A DNA stretch of 15,187 nucleotides from an uncultured Gammaproteobacteria bacterium (lineage in GTDB: Bacteria > Pseudomonadota > Gammaproteobacteria > Rariloculales > Rariloculaceae), in contig CAMPKU010000095.1 of assembly GCA_946887385.1 (NCBI GenBank), forward strand, positions 1-15,187, written 5' to 3'. The notes under the pieces were generated by a model. The model saw only the letters and a list, made by a program, of their open reading frames with translations. It was not told where the DNA came from and made no database searches. Numbering within the stretch: the stretch's first letter is position 1; each line of letters begins with the position of its first letter. Positions 4,866 through 12,663 of this stretch are shown piece by piece. The position numbers and the translations under genes were made by a program.

Positions 4866-6620
4866 CTAAATCAGCTCCCGCACCCGATCGCCGAGCACGG
4901 TCATCGCGATCTTTTCGCGGTTCGGTGTGCCGCGCATGAGCGATTCCGCGAGCTTAGCCGCCTGCTTCAGCGTCGTTTTCGGCGGCATCGGCGGCTCGTG
5001 GGGATCGACGACGGCTTCCACGATCACGGGCCCCGGCTCGTTCAGCGCAACTTCGAGGATCTCGCCGCATCGATGGGGATCCTCGATGGTGTACCCTTTG
5101 CCGCCGCACGCGCGAGCGAACGCTGCGAAGTCGATCGGCGCCAGCTCGCAGCCGTACTCGGGGTTACCGAGAAAGACCATCTGCTCCCACTTGATCTGCC
5201 CCAGCGAGTTGTTCTTGAGGATGATGACCTTGACGGGCAGGTCGTGAGCGACGCAGTTGACGAACTCCCCCATCAGCATCGTGAAGGCGCCGTCGCCGAC
5301 GAATGCCACGCACTGCCGGTCGGGATACGCCACTTGCGCCGCGATCGCATATGGAAAGCCATTGGCCATCGTGGCGAGATTGCCCGACAGCGAGCACATT
5401 TGCCCGCGGCGCACCGGAATATGGCGCGCATACCACGTGGCCACGGTGCCAGAGTCGCAGGCAAAAATCGCATCGTCGCGCAACCGCAAGCCGAGCTCGT
5501 GGGCCACCACCTGCGGCTTCATCGGCATGTCGCGCAACGTGCCGCGCTCTTCCATGAGCTCGCGCCACTCCTTCATGCCGCGCTGCGCACGCTCGAGAAA
5601 GCGGCGCTGCTCGTTGCGCGCAAGCTTAGGCTCGAGTGCGGCGAGCACCTTGCGGGTATCCCCGACCAGCGCGAGCTCGACGGGATAGCGCAACCCGATG
5701 CGAGTCGGATCGAGATCGATCTGCACGGCGCGCGCCTGGCCGGGCTTCGGGTAATACTCGATGTACGGAAAGCTCGAGCCGGCGATCAGCAGCGTGTCGC
5801 ACGATTCGAGCGCATCTTGCGACGGCGCGCTGCCGAGCAAGCCGACGGGCCCTGTCGTGAACGGGCTGTCGTCGGGCACGGCCATCTTGCCGAGCAGCGG
5901 CTTTACGATCACGGCGCCGAGCGTATCCGCGATTCGCTCGAGCTCGGCACCGGCGCCGATGGCGCCGCGTCCGGCGAGAATGACGATCTTCCTGCCCGCG
6001 TTGAGCAGTTTCGCCGCGGCCGTAAGCGTAGTTTCGTCGGGTAAACCGCTGAAGTCGGTATAGACGTCGGAGACGTGATGCGGCACGTTGCGCTTCGACG
6101 TCTCACTCTTATCGAACGGCATGTCCTGAACGTCGACGGGCACGGTGACATGGGCCACACCGCGATATGCGAGCGCCGTGCGGCACGCCAACGCCGTAAC
6201 GGACTCGACGTGCGCCGGCCCCATGATGCGGGAGTTATAAACGGCCACGTCCTGGAAAACCTTGTCGAGCTCCACGTCTTGCTGCGTGTGCGTATGCAGC
6301 AGATCGTGAAACTGCAACCCCGTGATCGCGACGACAGGTGCGCCGTCGAGCTTTGCGTCGTAGAGACCGTTCAGAAGATGGATGCCGCCGGGGCCGGAGG
6401 TAGCGAGGCAGCAGCCGATCTTGCCGGTCCACTTGGCATAGCCGGCAGCCATGAAGGCCGCGGCCTCCTCGTGGCGCACCTGCACAAAGCGCACGGTCTC
6501 CCGGCGCTTGCGCAGCGCTTCGACGATCCCGTTGATTCCGTCTCCGGGTAGCCCGAAGACAACTTCCACGCCCCAGTCTTGGAGCGTGTCGATCAGAATG
6601 TCGGCCGCCGTGTCTGCCAT
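4866..6620 (-). CDS. PoxB-like thiamine-diphosphate enzyme (pyruvate:quinone oxidoreductase family)
   Basis: A 584-residue enzyme with the three-domain layout of the acetolactate synthase/pyruvate oxidase family. The N-terminal domain (about 1-170) binds the thiamine pyrimidine and has the catalytic Glu51 in VRHEEAAAF. The middle domain (about 195-330) is the FAD/Rossmann-like region (ILAGRGA, LLIAGSSFPY). The C-terminal domain carries the diphosphate/Mg motif GDG (442-444) through NN (470-471). E. coli PoxB is 572 residues and has closely similar segments (GDGxFxMLMGxF; LPVKxxxxxN). PoxB decarboxylates pyruvate to acetate and CO2 and reduces membrane ubiquinone. The final residues could form the short amphipathic helix that tethers PoxB to the membrane. 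The start is fixed by two AAGGA boxes upstream. Acetolactate synthase is less likely, and substrate specificity cannot be read from sequence alone. Confidence 0.88.
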   Translation of the reverse strand: MADTAADILIDTLQDWGVEVVFGLPGDGINGIVEALRKRRETVRFVQVRHEEAAAFMAAGYAKWTGKIGCCLATSGPGGIHLLNGLYDAKLDGAPVVAITGLQFHDLLHTHTQQDVELDKVFQDVAVYNSRIMGPAHVESVTALACRTALAYRGVAHVTVPVDVQDMPFDKSETSKRNVPHHVSDVYTDFSGLPDETTLTAAAKLLNAGRKIVILAGRGAIGAGAELERIADTLGAVIVKPLLGKMAVPDDSPFTTGPVGLLGSAPSQDALESCDTLLIAGSSFPYIEYYPKPGQARAVQIDLDPTRIGLRYPVELALVGDTRKVLAALEPKLARNEQRRFLERAQRGMKEWRELMEERGTLRDMPMKPQVVAHELGLRLRDDAIFACDSGTVATWYARHIPVRRGQMCSLSGNLATMANGFPYAIAAQVAYPDRQCVAFVGDGAFTMLMGEFVNCVAHDLPVKVIILKNNSLGQIKWEQMVFLGNPEYGCELAPIDFAAFARACGGKGYTIEDPHRCGEILEVALNEPGPVIVEAVVDPHEPPMPPKTTLKQAAKLAESLMRGTPNREKIAMTVLGDRVRELI

Positions 6621-6796: not shown

Positions 6797-7579
6797 TTAG
6801 GTGCCCGCGTCGAAGCGACTGTAGTCGATCGTTGGTAGCCGCTCGATGTCCTCCGCCGTGTGCCGCAGCGTGTAGTGATCGAAACGCGGCTCCCAGCCGC
6901 GGTCGTCCCACGGAAACGCATACACCCCGCGTCGATCGATGTCGCTGCGCGCCTGCACCGCCACCACGGCAAGCAACTTACCGGCGTCATCGAAAACGAG
7001 ATCCGTCACGTAGCCGAACGGCTCGCCACTCTGGTGCACGACGTAGTCGTCGAGCAGAGCAGTCGCCTTCCAGATGTACGGGCCGGTTTCGAAGAACTCG
7101 TTGACACCGTCCAAGTTGCCGACGTCGGCCGCCGTGAAGTACTCCTCGGCGAACATACCGTAGTTCTCCGCCGTCTCTGCCGTGATCGGCGAGTAGACCC
7201 TGCCGCCGCGACGCTCGATCTCGCGCCACGGAATGGTCACGTGAGTATCGGCAATGTCCCAAAAGCCGCCGACCTCGGCTATCAGGGCGACGATCTCCGC
7301 GCGCGGGTTCAGCAGTAGGTTTTTGACGCTGCCGATCTCGTCGCCATGGGGCCCGTAGATCGGCCGATCGACGACGGCGTCGGCGTACCATCCTTCATAG
7401 ACGCGATCGTAATCCCAGCTAGTGAGCGGCATCGGCGAGACTCGCTGCTCTTTGCTCGACCGCGAGCCGGCGCTGTCGCCGGAGTCGCGCGCCTGCTGCG
7501 CCTGCTGCGCCGCCGCGCCGCCGACGAGCCCGATGGCTATTGCAAAGGCCAGAATAGTGCTGGATGTTCGTAGTGTCAT
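6797..7579 (-). CDS. Exported PRC-barrel domain protein
   Basis: A 260-residue protein with a signal peptide (hydrophobic core about 8-23, cleavage probably after AAA at 24). A Gln/Ser-rich low-complexity stretch follows to about 48. Two PRC-barrel-like units come next. The first is about 66-131, with the DRPIYGPHGDEIGSV pattern followed by strands leading to VTIPWREI. The second is about 172-226, with GEPFGYVTDLVFDDAGKL leading to GVYAFPW. PRC barrels are small beta-barrel adaptors found in photosynthetic reaction centre H subunits, RimM and many stress-linked envelope proteins; the partner here is unknown. The start is strongly supported by the ribosome site just upstream. The gene lies between the large outer-membrane protein gene and the PoxB-like gene on the same strand. 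A periplasmic structural or adaptor role is the most that can be inferred. Confidence 0.87.
   Translation of the reverse strand: MTLRTSSTILAFAIAIGLVGGAAAQQAQQARDSGDSAGSRSSKEQRVSPMPLTSWDYDRVYEGWYADAVVDRPIYGPHGDEIGSVKNLLLNPRAEIVALIAEVGGFWDIADTHVTIPWREIERRGGRVYSPITAETAENYGMFAEEYFTAADVGNLDGVNEFFETGPYIWKATALLDDYVVHQSGEPFGYVTDLVFDDAGKLLAVVAVQARSDIDRRGVYAFPWDDRGWEPRFDHYTLRHTAEDIERLPTIDYSRFDAGT
7491..7508. repeat. Two-copy 9-base tandem repeat
   Basis: GCCTGCTGC occurs twice in tandem inside the PRC-barrel gene. On the coding strand it gives the Ala-Gln-Gln repeat just after the signal peptide. It could vary in copy number without breaking the frame. Confidence 0.7.
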
Positions 7580-7713: not shown

Positions 7714-10700
7714 TCACCATCCCACGCCGATCCTGAAGCCGAACACCGCGTCCTCGCTCGGACGCTGGAACGGATACGCCACGAACACTTCGAGCGGAAT
7801 CGCGCCGAAAAGCACGGATCGAGCGGCGACTCCGGCACTGAAAACCGGCACGTGCTCCGCCGTATCGCGTTTGAACGTGACGTCTACCGATTCGCCCGAG
7901 CTCCATGCGGCGCCCACGTCGATGAAGAACGCAAGCTCCGTCGGCGCAGCCGGCAGCTCGAACAATCCGAAGTCTTCCGTGCCGAACAGCGGCAGGCGCA
8001 GCTCGAAGTTGAGAGCCGCGATCCGGCTGCCGACCAAGCGGTCGAACTCCGGGCAGCGTTGCAGCCCGGACGTCGGCGTGCATTCGTCGAGGTCGAACGA
8101 GCCGAGATCATAGCCGCGGACCAGCGCATTGGTGCCTATGTCGAGCGGTGTCAGGCGCGGATCCTCCGCGTCGTTGCCGCGCCGGCCGACGTGCAGGGCA
8201 CGCAGCGCGAACGTCAGAGGACGGCGGAAAAAATACCGCCGGTAATCGACGCGCAGCGTCGAAAATCGCAGGTCGCCGCCCGTCCATTCGTTCTCGAGCC
8301 TCAGACGCTCGCCCCGCACGGGCGACGCGAAGCCGAAGCGCGACGTGTCGCGCACATAGGCGAAAGAAGCCCGCTCGAGATCGAGCGTGGCGGGCGACGG
8401 CAATCCTTGGACTTCCCGGAACGGCTGAAAACCCTCGGGATAAACGAGTCGCTCGAGCTCTCGTTCGAAGTCGATGCGCTGCGCGCCCGCCGACGTCTCG
8501 ATCCGATGATTCTGCGAGAACGGGTACTGCCCGATCAGTGAAAGCTCCGATGCTTGCGCAGCTTCGACGACACGCTCTACCACGTCTGCCGCAACGCTCA
8601 TGCCGTTGACCTCCACGTCTTGTCTTGACAAGAAGGTCGAGCTGCCGATGTAGGGAACTCGCGACACTCGTCCGCCCCACCACCAGCGGCGCGCTTGATT
8701 CAAGTAGAGCGCCTCGGCGCCGAATGTATCCTCGAAATCCAGGAGCCCCGAAGTGCTGCCGCCCTGCACCGTCGTCACGATTTGATGCCGGTTCAGCGTG
8801 TCGCTGAAATAAGCGCTCAACGCGCCGTCGAACGCGCTGCCGTTACCCGCGGTCGCGACGCCGACGGTTGCCGGCCCGATGGCGGTGACGCCGATTCGAG
8901 ACTCATAGTCCCTGACGGGATAGTCCTTAACCTCGCTCGGTAATCCGCCTCTGGAGTCCGCGAGATAGCTCTCGACCGTGTCGTCGGCATCGAGCGAACG
9001 AAACGGCGGGAGCATCGCCGTATTGAGCGGCGTTTCGGCCGGCTGCACGGGCTCGGCTTGCGGCTCGGCGATTCGGTAGATTGCATAGTCGCCGCCTTCC
9101 GGCACCGAGAACGCGATCGCTCCCGTCGCGTCGACCGACAGCGACGGCGACATCGACGTGATGCCCGATACGCCGGTCTTGAGCCTCGTGATGCGCGCCA
9201 TGCGGCGCTCGCCAAGATCGAACCGAAATACGTCGGGGACGCCGTCCGGTGCTCCAATGAAGTACAAGCTCTCTCCGTCCGGAGAGAAATGAGGATCGAT
9301 GTGCTTGCCGTTCGGAAAGATCGGCAGCACCTCGACAGCACGCGTCGCCAGGTCGAGCAGCGCGAGCTGCGGCTCGCCGAAGCTCAAGCGGTCGAGATTC
9401 GTCTCCGGACCGCGGTCCGTCACGAACACGATTCGCCGTCCATCGGGCGAGAACGCGGGCTGGATCGCCGTATAGCCGTCGGCGGTGAGCCGCTCGATCT
9501 CGCCCGTCGCAATCTCGAGCCGATACAGATCGCTTGCGGCGTTCGCCCTGGCCGAGAACACGATCGACTCGCCGTCCGGCGACCACGCCGGATGACGCAT
9601 GCCGCCGATGCCGGGCAGGTCGATGCGCCGCTCGATGCGGCCTCGTTCGACGTCGTAGATCGCGAGCCGGCGCTCGCCCCGCGCGAACACGGCAAACGCA
9701 AATCGGCGGCCGTCCGGGGACCAGGCGACACTCGAATCGAGGAAGCTGAGATTGTCGAAGTGCGGATCCGCCTCCGCGCTCACGAGCTTGCGCTCGACCG
9801 TGCCCGTCTGTACGTCCGCGAGATACAGCTCGAGCGCGAGCTCGCGCGTCGACAGAAATGCCACGTGGCGGCCATTCGGGCTCAGGGCCGGCGCAAGATT
9901 GATCGCGGCGCCCGTGGTTGCGGCGCGGAGCAACGGCTCGGCCACGTCGGCCGGCGTCTGGCGGCTGTCGAGCACTGGGCCATAAGCCATACGCAATGCG
10001 AGATGAAAGTCCGCGAAGAAATCGCGCGCCATCATGTCGAGCACGGACTCGATGGCCGCGTCCGGACCTTCGCCGAGCGCGGTCACGAACAACCTTTGCG
10101 CCGTCGCGTCGTCCCATGTTCCCGCGACGTACGCCCAGACGGCTTGACCGTACTGATACGGCGACGGCCGGCGTTGAACGAGCTTGTCGGGGTCCGGCAG
10201 CCGATCATGCAGCACGGCGTCGCGCATCTGGAGGGCCGTCGCCGGATCATGTCGGCCTTGAGACAAGTACTCGGCGAGCCCTTCGATGACCCAAAGCGGC
10301 ACTTGCGCCGAACGGCGGTTGCGAGCCGGATCGCGCTGCCGCTCTTCGATGATGTCGAACTGAAACACGTGCACGAGCTCATGCCCGATGACGTGGTCGT
10401 TGTCCTCGTTGATCGCGGTGAGCGGCAACACGACGCGGTGCTGCCGGGACTCGGTGAGGCCGCCCGTACCCTCGCCTATCAGAGACTGCGCGATCACGGT
10501 CTGCTGAAAGTCGGCGTGGTCGGCGTAGATTACGAGCGACTTCTTTTCCGACAGCTCGTGCGCGAAGAATTCCGCCAAGCGCGTATACCAGCGCTCGGCG
10601 ATGCGCGCGACATACTCCGCATGCTCCGCCTCCGGCGGGTAGTAGTGAATCAAGAAGTGCTCGGTTTCGAGGATCTCGAAATCGAAGCGCTCCCAAACGA

Positions 10701-10800
10701 CCTTGTTGCGGCCGAAATACTGCGCGGCCGCCGGCGCGGGCGCCCCGGCCCACAAGACGGCAGCGATTAGGCTCCCAAGGCACACGACGGCACGGCGCAT
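7714..10800 (-). CDS. Outer-membrane protein: zinc peptidase (MA-like) + six-bladed TolB-like propeller + Omp85-type barrel
   Basis: A 1028-residue protein with a signal peptide (1-26, APAAA before Q27). About 40-275 is a gluzincin-like metallopeptidase domain with HELVH (140-144) and a likely third zinc ligand, E173, in EGLAEYLS. About 300-580 is a beta-propeller with PD40/TolB repeats. SPNG/SPDG cores occur near 307, 361, 407, 451 and 506, and a degenerate sixth blade lies near 552-580, giving six blades as in TolB. About 625-1028 is a beta-barrel with the Omp85 hallmark VRGYD (894-898) and a terminal aromatic residue, W1028, as in barrel assembly signals. C907 and C916 near that motif may pair in a loop. 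No POTRA domain is apparent. A GGGAGG box six bases upstream fixes the start; a longer open frame to 10953 lacks signal-peptide logic. The function is unknown. Periplasmic proteolysis coupled to an outer-membrane channel is inference. Confidence 0.9.
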   Translation of the reverse strand: MRRAVVCLGSLIAAVLWAGAPAPAAAQYFGRNKVVWERFDFEILETEHFLIHYYPPEAEHAEYVARIAERWYTRLAEFFAHELSEKKSLVIYADHADFQQTVIAQSLIGEGTGGLTESRQHRVVLPLTAINEDNDHVIGHELVHVFQFDIIEERQRDPARNRRSAQVPLWVIEGLAEYLSQGRHDPATALQMRDAVLHDRLPDPDKLVQRRPSPYQYGQAVWAYVAGTWDDATAQRLFVTALGEGPDAAIESVLDMMARDFFADFHLALRMAYGPVLDSRQTPADVAEPLLRAATTGAAINLAPALSPNGRHVAFLSTRELALELYLADVQTGTVERKLVSAEADPHFDNLSFLDSSVAWSPDGRRFAFAVFARGERRLAIYDVERGRIERRIDLPGIGGMRHPAWSPDGESIVFSARANAASDLYRLEIATGEIERLTADGYTAIQPAFSPDGRRIVFVTDRGPETNLDRLSFGEPQLALLDLATRAVEVLPIFPNGKHIDPHFSPDGESLYFIGAPDGVPDVFRFDLGERRMARITRLKTGVSGITSMSPSLSVDATGAIAFSVPEGGDYAIYRIAEPQAEPVQPAETPLNTAMLPPFRSLDADDTVESYLADSRGGLPSEVKDYPVRDYESRIGVTAIGPATVGVATAGNGSAFDGALSAYFSDTLNRHQIVTTVQGGSTSGLLDFEDTFGAEALYLNQARRWWWGGRVSRVPYIGSSTFLSRQDVEVNGMSVAADVVERVVEAAQASELSLIGQYPFSQNHRIETSAGAQRIDFERELERLVYPEGFQPFREVQGLPSPATLDLERASFAYVRDTSRFGFASPVRGERLRLENEWTGGDLRFSTLRVDYRRYFFRRPLTFALRALHVGRRGNDAEDPRLTPLDIGTNALVRGYDLGSFDLDECTPTSGLQRCPEFDRLVGSRIAALNFELRLPLFGTEDFGLFELPAAPTELAFFIDVGAAWSSGESVDVTFKRDTAEHVPVFSAGVAARSVLFGAIPLEVFVAYPFQRPSEDAVFGFRIGVGW

Positions 10801-10953: not shown

Positions 10954-12663
10954 ATGGCGCCGCGCGCTGGCATCATCCTTGCGTTATGGTTCGCGGCCGG
11001 CACGGTTCGCGCGGCAACGATGATCGACGGCATCGACGGCGATGTGCTCGACAACGTTCGGCAGTTCATCGACGAACCGGACTGCGCCGCCGGCGCCACG
11101 GCCGTCCGCCGCTACATTCGCGACCTACCCGAGGACGTGCGCCCCGCCCTCGAGGCGTTCGGCTACTACGAGCCGCGCCTACGCGCCCGGCGCATGGCCG
11201 ACACAGCGGAATGCTGGAGCGTCGAGCTGACCATCGAGCCGCGCCAACCCGTGGTCGTGCGCGACGCGTCGGTCGCGGTCACTGGCCAGGCAGGGGACGA
11301 TGCGGCTGTCGGTGCGCTCGCGAATGACTTTCCCCTGCCTCCGGGCAGCACCCTGAATCATGGCCGCTACCGCGACTTCAAAAGCCGGCTTGCCGCCCTG
11401 GCGCGGGAGCGCGGCTACCTCGACGCGCGCTTTACGACCGAGCGCATCGATGTCTACGTTGACGAACGCGCGGCCGACATCGAGCTCACGTTCGACTCCG
11501 GCCCGCGTTACGCATTCGGCGCCGTCACGTTCGCAACCGATGCCCTGCGCAGTGACGTGCTCGACAGCTTCGTGACCTTCGAGCCGGGCCAGCCCTATGA
11601 CGCCGGCTCCGTCGCCGACCTGCAGCGGACTTTGACGGCGAGCGAATACTTCGAGCAAGCGCGTGTCGTGCCGGAATTCGATGCCGCCGACGACGGCGTC
11701 ATACCGATCCGCGTCGATGCCGTGCCCGCAGAGCCGACGAGCAGCGCGATCGGCGTCGGCTTCTCCACCGACGATGGCCCACGCTTCAGCTACGCGCGCG
11801 AAAACGTGCGCCGCAATCGGGCCGGTCATCGCTACGAGCTCGACGTGCTGCTGGCGCAGGTGCGGCAGAACGCGACACTCGACTACCGCATTCCGATCGA
11901 CAATCCACGGCGCGATTGGTGGAGCCTGCGTGCCGGCGCGGAGCGGGAAGACATCGACGCAGGCGTCGGCTCCGTCGCGCGGCTTGGGCCGCATCGGGTA
12001 CGGGTGACGGGCGACCGCACGGTGACCCGTTTCGTGGACTTACTCGTCGAGCACGACCAGATCAGCGGTGGCACGCTCGACACGAGGCTCGTGCTGCCGG
12101 GGCTCGAGTGGTCGCGAAGCTATCGCGACGATCTCATACGGCCGCGCGAAGGGTACCGGCTGAGCTACGGCGTCTCGCTCGGCGTCGGCGACGTCGAGCT
12201 GATCCAAGCCGACTTCCGCGGCAAGTGGGTCACTGCGACGCCGTGGGACGGGCGCGTGATCCTTCGCGGCCGAGCGGGCGTGACACTCGAGGACGATGAG
12301 TTCGATCGAGTGCCGCTGTCCCTGCGCTTCTTCTCGGGCGGCGACAACAGCGTCCGCGGCTACGACTATGAAACGCTCGGCCCCCGCAACGCCGCCGGCG
12401 ATCTCATCGGCGGCAACCGTGTATTCGAAGCCAGTGTCGAGTACGAGCACCCCGTCACTCAGTCGTGGTCGGTGGCCACCTTCGTCGATGCGGGTAACGC
12501 ATTCCTGCGCTCGGATTTCGACCGGCGCACGGGAGCGGGCATCGGTGCGCGCTGGTTTACTCCGATCGGGCCCGTGCGGCTCGATATCGCATGGCCCATC
12601 GATACGGCGCCCGGCGAGGACGACGGCCCTCGTTTGCACTTGAGCCTTGGGCCGGACTTGTAG
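10954..12663 (+). CDS. tamA: TamA, outer-membrane component of the translocation and assembly module
   Basis: A 569-residue Omp85-superfamily protein (E. coli TamA is 577). A signal peptide covers about 1-20. Three POTRA-like domains follow at about 22-96, 98-181 and 184-258; for example RYAFGAVTF opens the third. The 16-stranded barrel runs about 262-569, with the L6 motif VRGY at 467-470. The tail SLGPDL matches the typical TamA ending. TamA works with inner-membrane-anchored TamB to insert certain outer-membrane proteins and to support envelope lipid transport. The ATG at 10954 is chosen because it opens the signal peptide directly. A TTG five codons upstream is possible, and neither has a clear ribosome site. 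C44 and C87 in the first POTRA region could form a disulfide. The tamB start follows after five bases. Confidence 0.93.
   Translation: MAPRAGIILALWFAAGTVRAATMIDGIDGDVLDNVRQFIDEPDCAAGATAVRRYIRDLPEDVRPALEAFGYYEPRLRARRMADTAECWSVELTIEPRQPVVVRDASVAVTGQAGDDAAVGALANDFPLPPGSTLNHGRYRDFKSRLAALARERGYLDARFTTERIDVYVDERAADIELTFDSGPRYAFGAVTFATDALRSDVLDSFVTFEPGQPYDAGSVADLQRTLTASEYFEQARVVPEFDAADDGVIPIRVDAVPAEPTSSAIGVGFSTDDGPRFSYARENVRRNRAGHRYELDVLLAQVRQNATLDYRIPIDNPRRDWWSLRAGAEREDIDAGVGSVARLGPHRVRVTGDRTVTRFVDLLVEHDQISGGTLDTRLVLPGLEWSRSYRDDLIRPREGYRLSYGVSLGVGDVELIQADFRGKWVTATPWDGRVILRGRAGVTLEDDEFDRVPLSLRFFSGGDNSVRGYDYETLGPRNAAGDLIGGNRVFEASVEYEHPVTQSWSVATFVDAGNAFLRSDFDRRTGAGIGARWFTPIGPVRLDIAWPIDTAPGEDDGPRLHLSLGPDL

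What the first reader, a model, noticed from the sequence alone, without database searches (positions are those of the whole stretch)
7714..10800. One polypeptide joins a zinc peptidase, a complete six-bladed TolB-like propeller and an Omp85-type barrel
The sequence shows HELVH plus a downstream EGLAEY glutamate, five clear SPDG-type blades with a degenerate sixth, and a VRGYD-bearing barrel with a terminal aromatic. Classical Omp85 proteins place POTRA domains before the barrel. Here a peptidase and a propeller occupy that periplasmic position. I recall databases annotating related mixtures in other phyla as PD40 or BamA/TamA family proteins, but I know of no described function. A self-contained outer-membrane protease/channel, for example one that processes or clears substrates at the barrel mouth, is a testable inference.
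Basis: partly seen in the sequence, partly recalled or inferred. Interest (0 to 1): 0.75.

Follow-up and report, generated by a model that had tools for sequence, protein, structure and literature searches.

The report
Outer-membrane barrel fused to zinc peptidase
This gene encodes one bacterial outer-membrane protein built from a zinc-peptidase-like domain, a TolB-like propeller and a BamA-like barrel; it belongs to a very large, uncharacterised family whose propeller and barrel have been described before but whose peptidase domain seems to have been overlooked.

The parts
7714..10800 (-). Whole gene, 1028 aa plus stop: signal peptide, zinc-peptidase domain, six-bladed propeller, linker, Omp85 barrel
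10723..10800 (-). Probable Sec signal peptide (residues 1-26), cleavage after AxA, no lipobox cysteine seen
   Evidence: sequence; helix 2-19 in the model; homologue consensus ends AxA before QYFGRNKV; no signal-peptide program was run
10699..10722 (-). QYFGRNKV, residues 27-34, at the predicted mature N-terminus: highest-scoring 8-residue stretch of the protein, yet low pLDDT
   Evidence: (F/Y)GxN kept in 12 of 13 and 20 of 20 distant relatives, literal FGxNK in 8 of 13 and 14 of 20
9952..10680 (-). Gluzincin-type zinc-peptidase domain, residues 41-283
10459..10476 (-). GEGTGG, residues 109-114, upstream of HEXXH; possible substrate-binding edge (inference)
   Evidence: G113 and G114 invariant in A1 and fourth best 8-mer window; but the GG pair is kept in only 5 of 13 and 11 of 20 distant relatives
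10369..10383 (-). HELVH, residues 140-144: two zinc histidines and the catalytic glutamate E141
   Evidence: invariant in A1; HE..H in 119 of 119 homologues, 76 of 76 locus ORFs, 13 of 13, 20 of 20
10267..10284 (-). EGLAEY, residues 173-178: E173 the probable third zinc ligand
   Evidence: invariant in A1 and A2; 13 of 13 and 20 of 20 distant relatives; aligns with LWLNEGFA of an M1 aminopeptidase (E 0.19, weak)
9046..9951 (-). Six-bladed TolB-like beta-propeller, residues 284-585
8893..9045 (-). Linker, residues 586-636, in the place where POTRA domains usually lie
   Evidence: no POTRA hit; only short helices and one short strand; least conserved part after the signal peptide
7717..8892 (-). 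Omp85 barrel, residues 637-1028, about 16 strands, terminal Trp
8110..8121 (-). VRGY, residues 894-897, the Omp85 loop 6 motif
   Evidence: G896 and Y897 invariant, V894 and R895 nearly so; RG at this place in 11 of 13 (not L084, L086) and 19 of 20 distant relatives, the other cut by its contig end
8053..8082 (-). Stretch from C907 to C916 just after VRGY; the two cysteines are a possible extracellular disulfide of this subgroup
   Evidence: both invariant in A1; gaps at these columns in 13 of 13 and 20 of 20 (one of them cut off before the barrel end)
10954..12663 (+). Divergent neighbour: TamA-like, POTRA domains plus Omp85 barrel (context, not part of the protein)
   Evidence: Pfam over cut-off; NCBIfam TamA 443.1 of 625 bits
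12591..15185 (+). TamB-like gene next to tamA, cut by the window end; start not determined (context)
   Evidence: Pfam TamB 23.2 of 22.4 bits; NCBIfam TamB 168.3 of 825 bits; frame

Best explanation
It is an outer-membrane-anchored zinc metallopeptidase. The Omp85-type barrel sits in the outer membrane; the gluzincin domain and the TolB-like propeller hang from its N-terminus into the periplasm, in the place of POTRA domains. The propeller holds or presents a substrate, the peptidase cleft binds an extended segment, and E141 with zinc held by H140, H144 and E173 cleaves it. The most likely job is processing or clearing envelope or outer-membrane proteins, analogous to E. coli BepA working on the BAM complex, with protease, propeller and barrel in one chain. 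Shown by calculation: the three folds, the order of domains, the invariant catalytic residues. Inferred: zinc binding, proteolysis, periplasmic side, substrate.
For: Folds. HEXXH kept in every sequence I looked at: 119 of 119 homologues, 76 of 76 ORFs picked from 80 loci, 13 of 13 distant relatives and 20 of 20 more; E173 in 13 of 13 and 20 of 20. The two active-site stretches are the second and third most conserved 8-mer windows of the protein. Of the 66 members of A2, 65 match Pfam BSP (a peptidase family) at E 0.01 or better, best 1.6e-8. The barrel motif RG persists in 11 of 13 and 19 of 20 distant relatives and the terminal aromatic in 19 of 20, so the parts travel together. Of the 16 matches in 20 genomes that covered the N-terminal part but not the barrel, 12 also have an Omp85 match in the same frame, one of them below cut-off; 4 have none (my comparison). 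Side of the membrane, by analogy: the N-terminal domain of Omp85 protein PlpD was placed in the periplasm by experiment (PMC11116518, passages). Analogy for the job: BepA, a periplasmic zinc peptidase that promotes or degrades LptD, probably on the BAM complex, through an edge strand next to its active site (PMC8423444, abstract).
Against: No substrate, zinc or activity data. The best peptidase fold matches are collagenases and aminopeptidases, not M48 peptidases like BepA, and Foldseek's own E-values are modest (best 3e-4, 4 matches at 1e-3). The matched folds include 7edx (TFIID; recalled as a non-enzymatic M1-like subunit) and leukotriene A4 hydrolase, so the fold alone does not prove proteolysis. 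The GG pair I would read as a substrate-binding edge is kept in only 5 of 13 and 11 of 20 distant relatives. Relatives are almost absent from the sampled class of G001 (1 of 114), while BepA was studied in E. coli. Neighbours do not point to one pathway. Relative placement of the three domains was not read out; only the overall pTM (0.83) suggests it is fixed.
Confidence: 0.42

Rival explanations
1. Peptide-processing pore: the barrel passes peptides and the propeller acts as a gate or sieve in front of the peptidase, as propellers do in S9 peptidases and tricorn protease (recalled). The role would be peptide use or trimming, not quality control.
For: Propeller lies between peptidase and barrel in the chain; S9 peptidases are among the Foldseek matches of the whole model, driven by the propeller; the peptidase domain resembles collagenases and aminopeptidases.
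Against: BamA-type barrels are not known as open nutrient pores (recalled). In one sampled phylum matches are nearly universal (80 of 81 Gemmatimonadota), which fits housekeeping better than an optional diet, though not decisively.
Confidence: 0.2
2. Surface display or secretion: the barrel exports the peptidase and propeller to the cell surface, as once proposed for PlpD.
For: Omp85 relatives such as FhaC translocate proteins (PMC4104836); the peptidase resembles secreted collagenases (secretion recalled).
Against: For PlpD the idea was tested and the N-terminal domain found periplasmic (PMC11116518, passages). The chain has two large folded domains before the barrel.
Confidence: 0.12
3. Assembly scaffold first, enzyme second: an Omp85 insertase or lipid-handling partner in which the propeller recruits partners as BamB does; the metal site is structural or rarely used.
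For: Heinz and Lithgow propose a BamA-BamB-like fusion (PMC4104836, section 10). Envelope genes lie nearby: tamA- and tamB-like genes in the window, an MlaD-type gene convergent and close by in 15 of 56 loci with at least 1.5 kb downstream.
Against: Unbroken HEXXH plus E173 in the relatives examined is hard to explain without catalysis. The MlaD link appears mostly in one lineage and is convergent, so it may be shared synteny.
Confidence: 0.18

Closest known systems
WD40-Omp85 subfamily (Heinz and Lithgow 2014, PMC4104836)
   Same: N-terminal TolB-like propeller joined to an Omp85 barrel, without POTRA
   Different: The word peptidase does not occur in its main text and section 10 gives no such domain for this subfamily; its member list is in supplements I could not read, so identity with this family is likely but untested. 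Its 'Metallo' subfamily is defined by PF00149, which I recall as a metallophosphoesterase domain, not a protease.
PlpD / patatin-like Omp85 (PMC11116518)
   Same: Enzyme domain N-terminal to an Omp85 barrel, held in the periplasm
   Different: Patatin-like (lipolytic) domain and one POTRA; no propeller
BepA with the BAM complex (PMC8423444)
   Same: Zinc peptidase working beside an Omp85 machine that has a propeller subunit (BamB)
   Different: Separate proteins; M48 family (keyword), with a TPR domain (recalled); substrate known
M9 bacterial collagenases, M30 and M1 peptidases
   Same: Gluzincin fold, HEXXH and a downstream glutamate (motifs of these families recalled, except the M1 stretch seen)
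   Different: 10-14% identity in the M9 rows, 11% in the M30 row and 10-17% in the aminopeptidase rows; no propeller or barrel (recalled)
TolB
   Same: Six-bladed propeller fold, 21% identity over 245 residues
   Different: TolB has another N-terminal domain (recalled) and no barrel

Membership tests
Omp85 superfamily | C-terminal Omp85 barrel | tested here: met
Omp85 superfamily | Loop 6 (V/L)RG(Y/F) motif (recalled as defining) | tested here: met
   VRGY in the window, nearly invariant in A1
BamA or TamA | N-terminal POTRA domains | tested here: not met
   no POTRA hit; linker of 51 residues against a 79-position POTRA model, without the fold
WD40-Omp85 subfamily | TolB-like propeller before an Omp85 barrel | tested here: met
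   against PMC4104836
WD40-Omp85 subfamily | Sequence clustering with the published members | not testable with these tools
   member lists are in supplements, no look-ups allowed
Gluzincin zinc peptidases (clan MA) | HEXXH with a downstream glutamate ligand | tested here: met
Gluzincin zinc peptidases (clan MA) | Gluzincin fold | tested here: met
Gluzincin zinc peptidases (clan MA) | Zinc binding and proteolysis | not testable with these tools
   needs protein
Pfam BSP or Peptidase_MA_2 | Score over the curated cut-off | tested here: not met
   18.5 of 23.8 and 16.2 of 32.4 bits for the window; some relatives score better (BSP 1.6e-8, Peptidase_MA_2 4e-9 at best)
TolB (NCBIfam TIGR02800) | Score over the equivalog cut-off | tested here: not met
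   126.2 of 343.15 bits

The most novel reading that the evidence does not exclude
A one-chain outer-membrane assembly and quality-control machine: barrel, propeller and protease cooperate so that the barrel receives or folds an envelope protein while the attached zinc peptidase removes failures, with the conserved mature N-terminus ((F/Y)GxN) acting as a built-in docking or switch peptide. It would be a protease arm of the Omp85 superfamily spread over at least three phyla and unnoticed.
Probability: 0.2. Interest if true: 0.8.

Novelty: new variant of a known kind. Interest (0 to 1): 0.52.

Why it matters
Until PlpD, studied Omp85 proteins were found to assemble or move proteins, and a 2024 paper names the WD40-like subfamily among those not well characterised (PMC11116518, passages). 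If that subfamily carries an active zinc peptidase, whole phyla would have an outer-membrane protease in the superfamily best known for assembly. The prediction is sharp: alter one residue (E141) in a cultivable relative and look at the envelope proteome. Salinibacter altiplanensis and Salinivenus lutea carry members.

Tried and rejected
Whole-genome search of the window's own genome: none held. Profile search against PDB sequences with the peptidase part gave only a weak M1 aminopeptidase match (E 0.19) and a chance MarR match (E 1.1), so family assignment rests on fold. With the full alignment the 54 PDB sequence matches have their best stretches in propeller positions, so no solved relative of the whole protein was found by sequence. 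In the VIA rows of the whole model, propellers and barrels fill the list; hence the separate model of the peptidase domain.

Considered and rejected: pseudo-enzyme (no HEXXH loss in the sequences examined); sole Omp85 of the cell (each of the 20 genomes searched has at least three Omp85 matches, members of this family among them; which of them is BamA was not determined); a recognisable extra domain in L072 (its 1713-aa frame has no Pfam hit at E 0.01 before the peptidase part).

Genome context was weak. MlaD-type gene convergent and within about 520 bases in 15 of 56 loci that hold 1.5 kb downstream (76 of 80 loci had a picked ORF); 8 of the 15 also have an ABC ATPase of the same cluster. L033 and L035 look like near-duplicates (same positions and percent identity), not checked by alignment. 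The 15 are titled Gemmatimonadetes, Gemmatimonadota, uncultured Gemmatimonadetes or Longimicrobiales, except L014, titled Gammaproteobacteria. Two more cluster members, in L029 and L049, lie further off and are not counted. Pfam was run on 7 of the 17 cluster members; all 7 are MlaD. tblastn of five window genes (tamA, tamB, TPP enzyme, PRC protein, exchanger) found only a barrel match of tamA next to the gene in L001 and in L081, which is from the same genome.

Biases to know: one search fetched loci with patterns that include EG[LM]AE and QYFGRN, so those two motifs are favoured in L001-L080 (EG.AE in 73 of 76); HEXXH was not in the patterns. The distant relatives (L082-L114) were picked by me among profile matches that reach the N-terminal part: 13 of 16 such N-terminal-only matches, and 20 rows. 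One of the 80 Gemmatimonadota genomes with a match (G438) matches only in the barrel (318-residue frame). A2 uses 65 of the 66 pieces that passed my coverage filter out of 76 ORFs; L033 was left out. A1 holds 72 of the 120 listed proteins. One search missed L001, L045, L048 and L056, probably because my ORF picker took overlapping frames (seen for L001). Columns for distant relatives come from adding them to A1 at fixed length, so single columns in the barrel may be misplaced.

Full report
What was checked. The open frame at window 7714-10800, minus strand, encodes 1028 residues from ATG. The start gives a basic and hydrophobic leader ending in AAA before QYFGRNKV, a typical signal-peptide site by eye; no signal-peptide program was run. 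Pfam finds PD40 (1e-29, five stretches) and Omp85 (4.9e-11, residues 759-1028) and no peptidase family over its cut-off. NCBIfam gives TolB-type propeller matches well below the cut-off and no model for the whole protein.

Conservation. The protein search scored the 7993 candidates sharing most words and kept 7188 at E 1e-3; of the 120 listed, one is the query's own entry. All 119 others carry HE..H. In A1 (72 rows) H140, E141, H144, E173, G174, A176 and E177 are invariant. Of 80 loci fetched from species genomes, 76 gave an ORF in my picker and 76 of 76 have HE..H; EG.AE is in 73 of 76, a motif favoured by the fetching pattern. More telling are relatives far from A1: in 13 regions from the genomes HE..H is present in 13 of 13 and E173-G174 in 13 of 13, with E177 in 7 of 13, RG at the loop 6 place in 11 and the GG of GEGTGG in 5; in 20 more, from the samples, HE..H and E173 are in 20 of 20, GG in 11, and RG and a terminal aromatic in 19, the exception being cut by its contig end. 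Scored in 8-residue windows over A1, the best three stretches of the protein are QYFGRNKV (27-34), EGLAEYLS (173-180) and GHELVHVF (139-146), then GEGTGGLT (109-116). A dead peptidase would not be expected to look like this.

Spread. With A1 at E 1e-60, matches occur in 80 of 81 genomes of the phylum of G003 (the locus there is titled Longimicrobiales, hence Gemmatimonadota; in one of the 80 only the barrel matches), 59 of 99 of the phylum of G002 (Salinibacter), 33 of 80 of the phylum of G007 (titled Acidobacteria) and 1 of 114 of the class of G001 (titled Gammaproteobacteria, the match being G001 itself). Among 58 genomes searched as relatives of G001, only G001 matches. Group names are taken from the record titles, since the genome tool tells none. 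Many rows match in the N-terminal part only; such rows come mostly from frames of about 940-1250 residues, and in the 20 genomes compared, 12 of 16 such frames have a separate Omp85 match, one of them below the cut-off, and 4 have none. The window's organism is probably a gammaproteobacterium (a 64% identical homologue is so named, and tamA- and tamB-like genes lie next door), so the gene may have arrived there by transfer; I built no tree.

Context. In the window the gene is divergent from a tamA-like gene, with a tamB-like frame after it. In L001 (63% identical) a 555-residue frame with a POTRA and an Omp85 barrel follows in the same direction. In 15 of 56 loci with enough sequence, 14 of the 15 with Gemmatimonadota-type titles, an MlaD-type gene lies convergent and near. 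All are envelope genes, none is a constant partner.

What is known. Heinz and Lithgow 2014 (PMC4104836; I read the abstract, sections 10 and 13 and passages) divide Omp85/TpsB proteins into ten subfamilies. Their WD40-Omp85 subfamily has a propeller most like TolB before the barrel and is read as a BamA-BamB-like fusion. The word peptidase does not occur in the main text. Their 'Metallo' subfamily is defined by PF00149, which I recall as a metallophosphoesterase domain; if that is right, the genuine peptidase sits in the WD40 subfamily. The PlpD paper of 2024 (PMC11116518, passages) lists WD40-like Omp85 proteins among those not well characterised and shows that PlpD's enzyme domain stays in the periplasm. 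A 2026 review of the BAM complex (PMC13067283, passages) speaks of at least 12 Omp85 members; the passages shown mention no peptidase-propeller-barrel protein. Eight paper searches were answered: domain architecture, Omp85 with propeller and peptidase (13), WD40 (18, 20 of 30 papers listed), WD40-Omp85 (48), PD40 (62, no paper), HEXXH (63), BepA-related terms (64) and a mixed query (81). They listed no paper whose title or abstract start describes this peptidase domain; I opened four of the papers, and most subscription journals and all preprints are not held.

How it may work. The steady order peptidase, propeller, barrel, the absence of POTRA and the invariant active site suggest an enzyme fixed at the periplasmic face of the outer membrane. 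BepA offers the nearest working example: a periplasmic zinc peptidase that promotes or degrades an outer-membrane protein, probably on the BAM complex, using an edge strand by its active site (PMC8423444, abstract). The GEGTGG stretch before HEXXH could be such an edge in the window's own subgroup; it is not kept in many distant relatives, so this is a weak inference. The conserved mature N-terminus, placed with low confidence by both models but kept as (F/Y)GxN in 32 of 33 distant relatives, might be a docking or switch peptide; I recall that TolB's own N-terminus binds TolA. None of this is shown.

Verdict. Its new part is a probable zinc peptidase domain that the published descriptions I could reach do not mention, in a family far more widespread than expected.

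Noticed in passing
window 10699-10722: QYFGRNKV at the predicted mature N-terminus is the most conserved stretch of the protein in A1 although both models place it with low confidence; (F/Y)GxN in 32 of 33 distant relatives, literal FGxNK in 22 of 33.
   Followed up: partly
window 8053-8082: C907 and C916, just after the VRGY motif, are invariant in A1 but gaps stand at these columns in the 33 distant relatives, one of them cut off before the barrel end: a subgroup-specific possible disulfide in loop 6.
   Followed up: partly
L036:13082-14029 and 14 other loci: MlaD-type gene (with an ABC ATPase of one cluster in 8 of the 15) convergent to the barrel gene, 14 of the 15 loci with Gemmatimonadota-type titles.
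   Followed up: partly
L001:12957-14624: A second Omp85 protein with a POTRA domain lies directly downstream in the same direction in the 63% identical relative.
   Followed up: partly
window 6797-7579: PRC-barrel protein (Pfam PF05239) downstream of the barrel gene on the same strand.
   Followed up: no
window 4866-6620: Thiamine-pyrophosphate enzyme, best NCBIfam match PRK08273 but under its cut-off.
   Followed up: no
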